From positions 1 to 35,053 of the forward strand of contig DFEB01000019.1 in NCBI GenBank assembly GCA_002368605.1: DNA of 35,053 nucleotides. Direction: 5' to 3'. Made by a program: the position numbers and the translations under genes. Below, piece after piece: positions 1,204 to 2,735 of the stretch. The stretch comes from Treponema sp. UBA3813 (lineage in GTDB: Bacteria; Spirochaetota; Spirochaetia; Treponematales; Treponemataceae). The number at the start of each line of letters is the position of its first letter. The stretch's first letter is position 1. Under the pieces are notes generated by a model. The model saw only the letters and a program-made list of their open reading frames with translations. It ran no database searches and was not told where the DNA came from.

Positions 1204-1431
1204 ATGATTTGTAGATTCTGTGGTGATAACTTAAAAAGCGTAAATCAAAAATTATTCTCTTCGCTTGGTGAACGATGCAACGGAAATCCAAGTGGCAAAC
1301 ATATTGGTGTGACAGATTGTGTTTGCTGTGTCTATTGTGGTGACGAAGCAAGACCGCAGAATGGAAGGTTGATTACTAAACTTGGCTTGCAATGCAAAAA
1401 TTCCCCGACAGGCGGGCATTGCTTGCAGTAA
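1204..1431 (+). CDS. Small cysteine-rich protein with two identical-spaced CCCH modules
   Basis: This 75-residue protein was not assigned to a known family. It consists of two copies of one module, offset by exactly 39 residues: C3-x2-C6-x18-C25-x7-H33 and C42-x2-C45-x18-C64-x7-H72. Both copies share the pattern C-x-[FY]-C-G-D...LG-x-x-C-x-x-x-P-[ST]-G-x-H, so the spacing is clearly conserved by internal duplication. Three cysteines and a histidine at fixed spacing suggest one zinc ion per module (inference). There is no signal peptide or membrane segment, so it is probably cytoplasmic. The ATG abuts the stop codon of the LRR gene with no spacer, which implies translational coupling, and the next gene starts 16 bases downstream. 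It could be a nucleic-acid or protein-binding adaptor; nothing in the sequence settles this. Confidence 0.75.
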   Translation: MICRFCGDNLKSVNQKLFSSLGERCNGNPSGKHIGVTDCVCCVYCGDEARPQNGRLITKLGLQCKNSPTGGHCLQ

Positions 1432-1699: not shown

Positions 1700-1769
1700 A
1701 GAAGTCTCATGTTTGACAGGATAGAATTATTTTTTTGTTTAAAATTTTTGGGAAAAAACAATTCAAATC

Positions 1770-1800
1770 TTGATTTTCTGCCAGTTTAATGCGATATTAT
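1770..1800 (+). promoter_or_regulatory. Promoter of the structured RNA
   Basis: TTGATT at 1770-1775 can pair as a -35 box with GATATT (1793-1798, 17-base spacer) or the better -10 match TATTAT (1795-1800, 19-base spacer). Transcription would begin near 1805, just before the first helix of the structured RNA. The match is fair rather than strong. Confidence 0.5.
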
Positions 1801-1804
1801 AAGC

Positions 1805-1994
1805 GTAGGCAACTTGGGTGCCTTTCAAGTGATAATCCAAAGTTCTGTGACCAGGAAAGCAGTTCTTTGGGGAGCTTTATAAAGGTTTGAGCATTTACCA
1901 AGAGCTGGTCTCAGGTCGTCTTGAACGACTGAAAGAAAATGCTTTGCTCTTTATGAGCGACAGGCTCTGCTGATTCGTCGGCAGGGCTTTTTTT
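1805..1994 (+). ncRNA. Candidate structured RNA of unknown class, ending in an intrinsic terminator
   Basis: No protein fits this stretch, but it is rich in base-paired structure. By eye it contains an H-type pseudoknot (AGGC 1807-1810 with GCCT 1820-1823; ACTTG 1812-1816 with CAAGT 1826-1830). A hairpin follows (CCAAAG 1837-1842 with CTTTGG 1865-1870). Then comes a three-way junction closed by ATAAAG 1879-1884/CTTTAT 1949-1954 and GAGCATTT 1889-1896/AAATGCTT 1937-1944, with two inner hairpins (ACCA/TGGT at 1897-1909; TCAGGTCGT/ACGACTGA at 1911-1932). A terminator closes the unit. It does not match the conserved features of tmRNA, RNase P RNA, SRP RNA, 6S RNA or the common riboswitches known to me. 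It could be a stand-alone small RNA, a leader controlling the next gene, or the RNA antitoxin of a type III-like toxin system, although no tandem repeats were found. Confidence 0.55.
1964..1994 (+). terminator. Rho-independent terminator with UUCG tetraloop
   Basis: GCTCTGCTGA (1964-1973) pairs over 10 positions, with two G-U wobbles, with TCGGCAGGGC (1978-1987) around a TTCG loop, followed by seven T (1988-1994). This is a very strong intrinsic terminator. Its T-tract runs directly into the ATG at 1995 of the downstream open frame. Confidence 0.9.
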
Positions 1995-2006
1995 ATGGAG
2001 ATTTGG

Positions 2007-2573
2007 GTGAGTTCAATATACGATTGTGTCGATGCTTTTTCAAAACTACTGGATATCGAATATGTGATTATTCTCGGAAGGAAAAGTCAGAATGTAACTT
2101 TACAAATTGAATTCCGGAAAATTGATTTACATCACCTTTTGGGATTTCAACATCTTATTGACCGACCTGAACTTAACCACGACCGGGAAAAAGTCTTTAA
2201 CGATTTGAAGAAAAGAAAAATCTCCGCTACACATATTGAAAAATCACATCATTATACGAAAATCAAAGGAAGAGTAGATTTTCTGCCATATCTAGAAGAA
2301 ATCTTTGATGACAATAAAACAATCTTCAAATACAACGAAGCAATGAATAATTTTTCACTGATAAAATTCGAGTATCTTTTGAAAAATGAAATACTGTCGA
2401 AAAATGTGTTTACATTTTTGTCCAAAACTAAAAACGAAAAGTATTTTTGTCGCTCATTTTTTCCACAAGAAAAAACTGATTACAGCATAGGACAAACGCC
2501 ATGGACACTTTTGTATAAAAAGAAAATCAACAAGAAAAACGGAAACGAAATTATTCTGTATGATAGAAGATAG
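2007..2573 (+). CDS. PBECR4-like putative RNase (RelE/Barnase-EndoU-colicin fold) protein
   Basis: Protein of about 188 residues. It resembles, by memory and without a search, the PBECR4 family (phage Barnase-EndoU-ColicinE5/D-RelE-like nuclease 4): a short N-terminal helix, a beta-strand leading to LHHLLGFQHL (about residues 41-50), an IEKSHHYTKIKGR segment (about 77-89), an F.YL..IFD...IFKYNE stretch and a C-terminal SFFP...YS.GQ...LLYKKK motif. Members are predicted toxins or effectors; activity here is inference. An ATG at 1995 is in frame but touches the terminator T-tract and has no room for a ribosome site; GTG at 2007 has GGAG (1997-2000) 6 bases upstream and is preferred. The gene sits alone immediately behind a structured RNA and terminator, so its expression probably depends on read-through of that terminator. 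Base composition is AT-rich relative to the later metabolic genes, compatible with acquisition by transfer. Confidence 0.65.
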   Translation: MSSIYDCVDAFSKLLDIEYVIILGRKSQNVTLQIEFRKIDLHHLLGFQHLIDRPELNHDREKVFNDLKKRKISATHIEKSHHYTKIKGRVDFLPYLEEIFDDNKTIFKYNEAMNNFSLIKFEYLLKNEILSKNVFTFLSKTKNEKYFCRSFFPQEKTDYSIGQTPWTLLYKKKINKKNGNEIILYDRR

Positions 2574-2583
2574 ATTTAGCAAA

Positions 2584-2735
2584 AGCGTTAAGGATGCGTC
2601 ACACCCCCATCTCCTAAGGTAGGGAGCGACCCGTTAGGGGCAAAAACGCTTGCGAGGCAAGTTTTTAGTCGAGCCTCGGTGAAGGCTGTGCCTGAACCGC
2701 AAGCCCCTTAAAAACCTCGCCGTGAGTAATTTTGC
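2584..2735 (+). repeat. Structured intergenic element with nested inverted repeats
   Basis: No coding potential was recognised. The stretch is GC-richer than its surroundings and full of pairings: AGCGTT (2584-2589) with AACGCT (2645-2650), AAAAACgCTTGC (about 2642-2653) with GCAAG-TTTTT (about 2657-2666), TTAGGGGC (2634-2641) with GCCCCTTAA (2703-2711), and a final perfect stem ACCTCGCCG (about 2714-2722)/CGGCGAGGT (about 2739-2747). It may be a dispersed structured repeat or an RNA. No second copy was seen in this window. Confidence 0.4.

What the first reader, a model, noticed from the sequence alone, without database searches (positions are those of the whole stretch)
1770..2573. Structured RNA, terminator and putative toxin gene in tight order: a type III toxin-antitoxin-like layout
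A promoter, a roughly 190-nt RNA with a pseudoknot and a three-way junction, and a strong UUCG-capped terminator end exactly where a PBECR4-like nuclease gene begins. Known type III systems (ToxIN, CptIN, TenpIN) have this order: RNA antitoxin, intrinsic terminator that sets the RNA/toxin ratio, toxin gene. Against it, the RNA lacks the tandem repeats seen in known systems, and the protein is not recognisably ToxN. It could thus be a new RNA-toxin pair, or an unknown riboswitch or small RNA next to an unrelated gene.
Basis: partly seen in the sequence, partly recalled or inferred. Interest (0 to 1): 0.78.

Follow-up and report, generated by a model that had tools for sequence, protein, structure and literature searches.

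The report
Drum RNA paired with PBECR4 toxin
A known but unexplained bacterial RNA called drum sits directly in front of a predicted RNA-cutting toxin gene and has evolved together with it, so the two most likely form a self-contained poison-and-RNA-antidote module of a new variety.

Summary
The RNA is real and named: Rfam drum (RF02958), an sRNA family for which I found no published function. The gene is PBECR4 (PF18813). The link is general. In 59 genomes of the window's genus and order, drum and PBECR4 occur in the same 9, and 11 of 11 drums lie 45-68 nt before a PBECR4 match. The association also holds in drawn samples of 291 class and 397 family relatives of a Clostridium (p 3e-15, 4e-21), though there 11 of 23 and 13 of 45 drums lack an adjacent PBECR4. 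Drum has two covarying pseudoknots and a 5' hairpin that Rfam omits. RNA and protein distances correlate (Mantel r 0.80-0.89). A terminator-like hairpin separates RNA from gene; no anti-terminator or antisense pairing was seen. Of 32 drumless PBECR4 upstreams examined, 23 carry another RNA: two tandem H-type pseudoknots about 53 nt apart, reminiscent of CptI/TenpI antitoxins. An 835-bp promoter-RNA-terminator-gene block is shared at 98.4% with another Treponema at an unrelated site. Toxicity, RNase activity and binding are untested; no structure could be predicted.

The parts
1769..2603 (+). Whole block: promoter, drum RNA, terminator, PBECR4 gene
   Evidence: 835 bp shared at 98.4% with locus L034 (another Treponema sp. 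assembly); blastn finds no match between the two outside it
1770..1800 (+). Promoter: -35 TTGATT 1770-1775, -10 TATTAT 1795-1800, 19-nt spacer
   Evidence: Read from sequence; not found by the 16-18-nt consensus scan; promoter-like at this place in relatives
1807..1823 (+). P0, 5' hairpin upstream of the Rfam model (AGGCA/TGCCT)
   Evidence: 7 of 8 P0 pairs show changes on both sides in 38 drums; cognate arms exceed swapped arms, z 8.9; 2 of 40 non-redundant drums that lacked it were left out of the alignment
1827..1947 (+). Drum RNA (RF02958): P1 1827-1830/1874-1877, P2 core 1837-1842/1865-1870, P3 1884-1886/1897-1899
   Evidence: cmscan 67.7 bits, E 2.9e-12; covariation for P1 and P2; P3 was tested on one pair only
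1849..1910 (+). Pseudoknot 1: P2 loop GACCAG 1849-1854 with CTGGTC 1905-1910
   Evidence: Cognate versus swapped partners z 13.8; 4 of 4 pairs with changes on both sides, 95% of cells paired
1889..1944 (+). Pseudoknot 2 (H-type): P3 loop 1889-1896 with 1937-1944, at the end of GAAAGAAAA 1931-1939
   Evidence: z 7.6; 5 of 5 pairs with changes on both sides, 83% of cells paired, one pair unpaired in 23 of 38
1962..1994 (+). Intrinsic terminator, 12 bp, TTCG loop, then T run
   Evidence: terminator-like hairpin in 78 of 78 drum loci at this place by a loose scan that also finds one in 115 of 390 shuffles
1997..2000 (+). Shine-Dalgarno GGAG
   Evidence: Read from sequence; before GTG 2007
2007..2573 (+). 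PBECR4 gene (188 aa from GTG 2007; 192 aa from ATG 1995), predicted endoribonuclease toxin
   Evidence: Pfam PF18813 E 1.3e-39; start by alignment; H43, S80, R89, S117, D158, Y159 invariant in 70 proteins

Best explanation
Drum plus PBECR4 is a two-part RNA-protein toxin-antitoxin module that works like a type III system. One promoter drives drum. The terminator releases most transcripts as the free, doubly pseudoknotted RNA and lets a minority read through into PBECR4. The protein is an endoribonuclease of the BECR kind that would stop growth, and drum binds and blocks it. When the RNA is no longer replenished, for example when a phage shuts off host transcription or a plasmid is lost, the toxin is freed. 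Shown here: the parts, their order, conservation of the pair, covariation of the RNA, co-evolution, and sharing of the whole block between two unrelated sites. Inferred: read-through ratio, RNase activity, toxicity, direct binding, RNA lifetime, and phage defence or addiction as the benefit.
For: Association: same 9 of 59 genomes, 11 of 11 drums followed by PBECR4. Class sample of 291: drum in 16, PBECR4 in 20, both in 13, p 3e-15. Family sample of 397: 36, 72, both 31, p 3.5e-21. Of 80 loci found with a PBECR4 protein alignment, 78 have drum directly upstream; both the query proteins and the RNA model came largely from drum-bearing loci, and the independent check is Rfam's own model, which finds drum in 49 of 50 of those genomes (48 over cut-off). 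Plasmids: 4 of 4 fetched of 20 matched, three distinct versions. Layout: terminator-like hairpin in 78 of 78, median 19 nt before the start codon. RNA: two pseudoknots covary. RNA and protein distances correlate, r 0.80 (64 loci), 0.89 (26 Spirochaetota), 0.82 (35 Clostridia and others), 0 of 2000 permutations each. Asymmetric decay: 6 of 80 protein-found loci have a broken PBECR4 match, all six with drum upstream; 8 of 26 drums examined keep only PBECR4 remnants. In L034 the RNA stretch is identical while the gene differs and is broken. Drumless PBECR4 genes mostly carry tandem H-type pseudoknots in the same place (23 of 32 examined). Drum shows no cognate pairing with the terminator 5' arm (z -2.6) or the ribosome-binding region (z -0.6) in 39 of the 78 loci. 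No Pfam family occurs in more than 5 of 127 neighbour ORFs.
Against: No experiment: no toxicity, RNase, binding or RNA-seq data, and no predicted structure. Adjacency is not universal: 15 of 77 drums in the 50 picked genomes, 11 of 23 in the class sample and 13 of 45 in the family sample have no PBECR4 hit beside them; 11 solo drums have neither gene nor remnant. PBECR4 occurs without drum in 7 of 20 and 41 of 72 positive genomes of those two samples. The protein shows no sequence kinship to ToxN (hhalign probability 0.2%). A single drum is not a repeat array, the usual type III mark. PBECR4 as a nuclease is itself a prediction (PMC5512222 passages). Swap and shuffle controls ignore relatedness, and the structure was drawn from the same sequences it was counted on.
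Confidence: 0.77

Rival explanations
1. Drum is a cis-acting riboswitch or attenuator that senses a signal and lets transcription run into PBECR4; the RNA never binds the protein.
For: RNA, terminator and gene are in riboswitch order; drum is highly structured.
Against: No complementarity of drum to either terminator arm beyond swapped controls in 39 loci (z -2.6 and 0.9; positive control z 16.4). Drums with a hairpin of their own stand alone near prophage-like genes, and others sit beside remnants. RNA distance follows protein distance. A different pseudoknot RNA takes its place in a sister part of the protein tree.
Confidence: 0.1
2. Drum is a trans-acting sRNA or RNA cofactor that activates or directs PBECR4, rather than an antitoxin.
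For: RNA and protein co-evolve, as expected for any ribonucleoprotein; drum is large.
Against: The RNA is kept while the protein decays; a terminator that favours RNA over protein fits an inhibitor better. By eye, no variable guide region in the 38-sequence alignment.
Confidence: 0.08
3. Type I toxin-antitoxin or antisense control: drum pairs with PBECR4 mRNA.
For: RNA next to a toxin-like gene.
Against: Drum is on the same strand upstream; no cognate pairing to the ribosome-binding region (z -0.6).
Confidence: 0.02
4. Chance or hitch-hiking: two unrelated elements that share a mobile island.
For: Both are patchy and mobile; a sizeable share of drums in Clostridia has no PBECR4 beside it.
Against: Adjacency in 11 of 11, 12 of 23 and 32 of 45 drums in three genome samples, matched distances, and a shared block that begins at the promoter and ends 30 nt after the gene.
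Confidence: 0.02

Closest known systems
Type III toxin-antitoxin systems ToxIN, CptIN, TenpIN, AbiQ (review PMC5086642: outline, its sections 2, 4.3, 5 and 7, and passages of 6.1)
   Same: Promoter, pseudoknotted RNA, Rho-independent terminator, toxin gene in that order; chromosome, plasmid and prophage homes; A-rich strand inside the pseudoknot; in the PBECR4 sister class two tandem repeats about 53 nt apart (CptI 45 nt and TenpI 50 nt, 2.1 repeats, as quoted in PMC12373285).
   Different: Toxin is PBECR4, no detectable sequence kinship to ToxN; drum is one large, doubly pseudoknotted RNA of about 140 nt, not a repeat array.
AbiF-RCd22 of Clostridioides difficile (PMC12373285, passages read)
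   Same: A conserved orphan RNA motif (abiF, RF03085) lies with its own promoter and terminator upstream of a toxin gene, and was shown to neutralise the toxin by direct binding, in cis and in trans.
   Different: Toxin of the Abi_2/AbiD/F family and an RNA with two hairpin motifs; no link to PBECR4 or drum was seen in the passages or in my searches.
Drum RNA, Rfam RF02958
   Same: The window RNA is a member.
   Different: Rfam calls it Gene; sRNA. Three papers seen by passage mention it only for structure (PMC7657543, PMC11974997) or as an example of families taken over from the Weinberg and Breaker collection (PMC7779021). Here it gains a 5' hairpin and a protein partner.
PBECR domains of phage polyvalent proteins (PMC5512222, passages read)
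   Same: Predicted BECR-fold endoRNases, five of six families with a histidine and a C-terminal threonine or serine.
   Different: Here a free-standing gene with an RNA partner; the passages read mention none, and the term PBECR4 does not occur in that text.

Membership tests
Drum RNA RF02958 | Covariance-model score above gathering threshold | tested here: met
   67.7 bits against 43
PBECR4 PF18813 | Profile score above curated cut-off over nearly the full profile | tested here: met
   136.9 bits against 27, profile positions 2-187 of 188
[quoted passage not shown]
   Window; relatives: terminator-like hairpin in 78 of 78, shuffles 115 of 390
Type III toxin-antitoxin system | Antitoxin RNA is a tandem array of short repeats | tested here: not met
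   Single drum in the window; in the sister PBECR4 class 23 of 32 drumless upstreams have exactly two hairpins
Type III toxin-antitoxin system | RNA antitoxin forms a pseudoknot | tested here: met
   Two covarying pseudoknots; comparative evidence, not a solved structure
Type III toxin-antitoxin system | Toxin is a structural homologue of ToxN | tested here: not met
   By sequence profile only: Pfam gives PBECR4 and no ToxN_toxin, PDB profile search lists only two ribosomal proteins at E about 0.5, hhalign to 11 ToxN proteins probability 0.2%; fold comparison could not be run
Type III toxin-antitoxin system | RNA neutralises the toxin by direct binding; toxin is an endoribonuclease | not testable with these tools
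   Needs bench work
Riboswitch or attenuator | Aptamer competes with the terminator through an anti-terminator | tested here: not met
   No cognate complementarity in 39 loci, z -2.6, positive control z 16.4
Type I toxin-antitoxin system | RNA antisense to toxin mRNA | tested here: not met
   Same strand; ribosome-binding region pairing z -0.6
Known anti-phage defence genes (PADLOC 2.0.0) | Match to a catalogued defence protein | tested here: not met
   No match for the window protein at E up to 0.1

The most novel reading that the evidence does not exclude
PBECR4 founds a branch of RNA-antitoxin systems that evolved apart from ToxN: a different nuclease paired with two RNA classes (drum, and tandem H-type pseudoknots) that share one pseudoknot topology with an A-rich strand. 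Prophages carry stand-alone drums as decoy antitoxins that disarm the host's module.
Probability: 0.4. Interest if true: 0.88.

Novelty: new variant of a known kind. Interest (0 to 1): 0.8.

Why it matters
It gives a likely job to an orphan Rfam RNA and to a Pfam family of predicted toxins at one stroke, and makes both directly testable in E. coli. If right, inhibition of a toxic nuclease by a folded RNA arose outside the ToxN lineage too, as AbiF also indicates, so other orphan RNAs that sit in front of toxin-like genes deserve the same check. The second, repeat-type RNA gave no Rfam match and would be a new RNA family.

Tried and rejected
Housekeeping RNA or riboswitch family: within 1600-2800 Rfam gives drum; the four other hits are far below their thresholds. 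Known family names for the window protein: no PADLOC match, one NCBIfam match far below its cut-off (13.7 against 100 bits), PHROG 3446 of unknown function at E 5.6e-09. Phage relatives by protein: none by tblastn against 50,697 phage records and none by two protein scans of viral contigs. A drum DNA pattern hit 66 viral stretches; 2 (L216, L210) score 97-100 bits and have a PBECR4-like reading frame beside the drum (by eye), a third scores 23.5 bits and was not counted. My note says the L210 frame runs to the contig end; one search shows a 119-aa frame that stops before it. Pairing of the P0 loop with other parts: none (z -0.1, -0.6, 0.8). In the repeat RNA my first choice of the wrap-round strand was wrong and gave a null; with another anchor it pairs, but this strand barely varies (4.0 against 3.83 swapped), so that contact is weakly supported. 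Small protein antitoxin inside the RNA: three plus-strand frames of 22, 28 and 33 aa overlap it; not tested across relatives. Unassigned drumless PBECR4: L181, L184, L189 and L191 have neither RNA class by the tests used (R1 gives L189 18.9 bits); L288 is at a contig edge; L187, L190 and L192 have drum at 33.8-43 bits; L188 looks drum-like by eye only; of four drumless Treponema places (L022, L023, L026, L027) L026 is cut by a contig end and none was assigned. L056 (no drum upstream) and L091 (contig start) are the 2 misses. L172 and L173 (37 bits, below cut-off) are doubtful drums. Defence-island signal: Cas1, AbiEi, ToxN and SoFic occur once each in the listed top families of 127 neighbour ORFs (25 of 104 and 25 of 82 families shown) and AbiH beside one plasmid copy; no background was run. 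PMC9403866 was seen as a search listing only.

Full report
WHAT IS THERE. Window 1827-1947(+) is a member of Rfam family RF02958, drum (67.7 bits, gathering score 43). It is followed by a 12-pair terminator hairpin with a TTCG loop at 1962-1989 and a T run, then by a PBECR4 gene (PF18813, 136.9 bits). Alignment with relatives puts the start codon at GTG 2007 behind GGAG rather than ATG 1995. The same genome carries a second drum-PBECR4 pair on contig C53.

THE PAIR IS CONSERVED. In 59 genomes of the same genus and order, drum was found in 9 and PBECR4 in 9, the same 9; all 11 drums lie 45-68 nt before a PBECR4 match on the same strand. Four of 15 PBECR4 places there have no drum; one of them is cut by a contig end. 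In 291 genomes drawn from the class of a [Clostridium] clostridioforme genome (G083) drum occurs in 16, PBECR4 in 20, both in 13 (Fisher p 3e-15); 12 of 23 drums are directly followed by PBECR4, and 5 of the 11 others are copies in one genome. In 397 genomes drawn from its family the numbers are 36, 72 and 31 (p 3.5e-21), with 32 of 45 drums adjacent. A few genomes are shared between these samples, and both large drum searches used stricter filters that lose weak matches.

FROM THE PROTEIN SIDE. A scan of named genomes with 12 PBECR4 proteins, all from drum-bearing loci, gave 132 relatives, of which the best 80 were kept. Of these, 78 have drum directly upstream by a model that includes the 5' hairpin; the misses are a contig start (L091) and L056. 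Query and model were both built largely from drum-bearing loci, so this set favours the drum clade. As an independent check, Rfam's own model finds drum in 49 (48 over cut-off) of 50 of these genomes, 50 of the 72 that I had listed, the exception being the contig-start case; 62 of their 77 drums have PBECR4 directly downstream. PBECR4 was found on 20 plasmids, 19 of Enterococcus and 1 of Streptococcus; 4 were fetched (three distinct versions) and all have drum above threshold in the gap before the gene.

DRUMS WITHOUT AN INTACT GENE. I examined 26: the 25 non-adjacent drums of the picked and class sets, and L157, whose PBECR4 hit is short. The 11 further non-adjacent drums of the family sample were not examined. 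PBECR4 remnants within 700 nt were found in 8 (L157, L152, L130, L165, L167, L117, L168, L169; E 6e-18 to 0.022 in a small search), and L125 has a remnant of about 15 residues by eye. One (L171) is a weak second drum upstream of a drum-PBECR4 pair and two (L174) lie downstream of such a pair. Two (L172, L173) are doubtful and one (L164) is at a contig edge. The other 11 are solo; five of them (L156, L159, L160, L162, L163) follow the same kind of ORF end in phage-like surroundings (a Mu F-like protein in L160, a sub-threshold CHAP match in L156). Two viral contigs carry drum with a PBECR4-like frame; in L216 it lies between portal and terminase genes on the other strand and the gene is broken; in L210 the frame is 119 aa. 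Broken PBECR4 matches also occur in 6 of the 80 protein-found loci, all six with drum upstream. Retention of the RNA while the protein decays is what an antidote and a costly poison would show.

THE RNA. A sequence-only alignment of 38 of 40 non-redundant drums (A3; two without P0 left out) supports P0, P1, P2, P4 and two pseudoknots: 87.7% of cells pair against 70.6% in shuffles and 31-43% when partners are slid. Pseudoknot 1 joins the P2 loop to the stretch before P4 (z 13.8 against swapped partners). Pseudoknot 2 joins the P3 loop to the bases at the end of the conserved GAAAGAAAA (z 7.6); one of its five pairs is open in 23 of 38. P0, outside the Rfam model, scores z 8.9; three control pairings give z near 0. 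I see no three-way junction. The structure was drawn from these same sequences and the swap controls ignore their relatedness, so the z values overstate.

LAYOUT. Between drum and gene a terminator-like hairpin is present in 78 of 78 loci; the scan is loose and also succeeds in 115 of 390 shuffles. The median distance to the start codon is 19 nt. A sigma-70-like promoter scores at least 9 of 12 in 70 of 76 upstream regions (77 of 760 shuffles), and none of 76 gaps between RNA and gene reaches 9, though these gaps are short and had no control of their own. The gene therefore probably depends on read-through. In 39 of the 78 loci drum shows no cognate pairing with the terminator 5' arm (z -2.6), the 3' arm (z 0.9) or the ribosome-binding region (z -0.6), against z 16.4 for the terminator arms with each other. 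That speaks against an attenuator and against antisense control.

CO-EVOLUTION AND MOVEMENT. Drum and PBECR4 distances correlate, r 0.80 over 64 loci, 0.89 within 26 Spirochaetota and 0.82 within 35 Clostridia and others, with 0 of 2000 permutations as high in each. In a protein tree of 99 rows the window's PBECR4 groups with L033 (100/100) and then, with modest support (84/75), with Clostridia sequences; the genome's second copy lies among Clostridia. Window 1769-2603 is 98.4% identical to L034, another Treponema assembly, and the homology ends at the promoter and 30 nt after the gene; of 13 differing columns none is in 1806-1994 and 9 are in the gene, which is broken in L034. Among 127 neighbour ORFs no Pfam family occurs more than 5 times, so RNA plus gene appears to be the whole unit.

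A SECOND RNA CLASS. I read the upstream regions of 32 drumless PBECR4 matches: 19 of the 36 drumless rows of the picked and class sets, fragments mostly left out, and 13 of the 17 stronger ones of the family sample. Some are near-copies. Of the 32, 23 contain exactly two hairpins GTTG-5 nt-CAAC (or GTCG/CGAC) followed by an A run, spaced 49-65 nt (median 53), with a terminator-like hairpin by eye before the gene; only 1 of 80 upstream regions of the protein-found set has such a hairpin. The pattern was written after seeing the sequences. The hairpin-1 loop pairs 4 of 4 with the bases after its A run in 22 of 23 (mean 3.96 against 3.15 swapped; 0 of 1000 as high); a pattern that demands this pairing fits 22 of 32 upstreams and 12 of 6400 shuffles. 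The 5' strand pairs with the 3' end (4.83 against 4.02). In the 11 such loci given to Rfam no family matched this RNA. In the tree the RNA classes fall apart cleanly (6 label changes against 27.4 shuffled), with long-branch warnings for several rows, and with L056 and L091 labelled drum although none was seen there. The topology, an H-type pseudoknot with an adenine-rich strand, resembles CptI as described in PMC5086642 section 4.3, and drum's pseudoknot 2 has the same order of parts. That shared topology is my reading and was not tested as homology.

COMPARISON AND NOVELTY. Type III systems are described by a pseudoknotted RNA of tandem repeats, a terminator, and a ToxN-like endoRNase (PMC5086642, its sections 2, 4.3, 5, 7). 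Terminator and pseudoknot are met; tandem repeats are not met here but are met in the sister class; ToxN kinship is not met by sequence. So it most likely works like a type III system without being a ToxN-family member. The best precedent is AbiF-RCd22, where an orphan RNA motif upstream of a toxin proved to be an antitoxin (PMC12373285 passages). Library searches for drum RNA, RF02958, PBECR, PBECR4 and PF18813 found no paper linking the two or giving drum a function. Weinberg et al. 2017, where I recall that drum was first described, is not held, and most subscription papers and bioRxiv preprints are outside the library, so a remark there cannot be excluded.

LIMITS. Nothing here measures RNA, toxicity, RNase activity or binding. 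Many loci come from metagenome assemblies. Taxon names for the class and family samples (Clostridia, Lachnospiraceae) rest on the name of the centre genome.

Noticed in passing
L175-L180, L182, L183, L185, L186, L193, L262, L263, L265-L267, L269, L272, L275, L276, L278, L285, L286 (upstream of PBECR4): A second RNA class with no Rfam match in the loci searched: two tandem H-type pseudoknot units about 53 nt apart before a terminator-like hairpin and PBECR4.
   Followed up: partly
L156:1501-1608, L159, L160, L162, L163: Solo drum RNAs directly after the same kind of ORF end in phage-like surroundings, no PBECR4; four copies in one genome (G347). Possible decoy antitoxins.
   Followed up: partly
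L174 (G084 C15:20500-25200): One PBECR4 with a drum upstream and two more drums downstream: a small drum array around a single gene.
   Followed up: no
L171 (G082 C3): Two drums in tandem upstream of one PBECR4, the outer one weak (40.8 bits).
   Followed up: no
L031 (Enterococcus faecalis plasmid pEFM9-2): Drum-PBECR4 lies directly upstream of an AbiH family abortive-infection gene.
   Followed up: no
window 2575-2603: The right edge of the shared block falls in AAGCGTTAAGGATGCGTC, which looks like part of a repeat element (no second copy in the window); how the block moves is unknown.
   Followed up: partly
L187, L188, L192, L190: Divergent drum-like RNAs below or at the Rfam threshold (33.8-43 bits for three of them, L188 by eye) upstream of divergent PBECR4: the family is wider than the Rfam model.
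   Followed up: partly
Treponema drum loci, e.g. L039, L040, L042 upstream of P0: An extra conserved stretch TAAGTCCTTGCCATTCAAGGCG (hairpin CCTTG/CAAGG) precedes P0 in many Treponema drums but not in the window.
   Followed up: no
window 1204-1431: Small cysteine-rich ORF of 75 aa with no Pfam or NCBIfam match.
   Followed up: no
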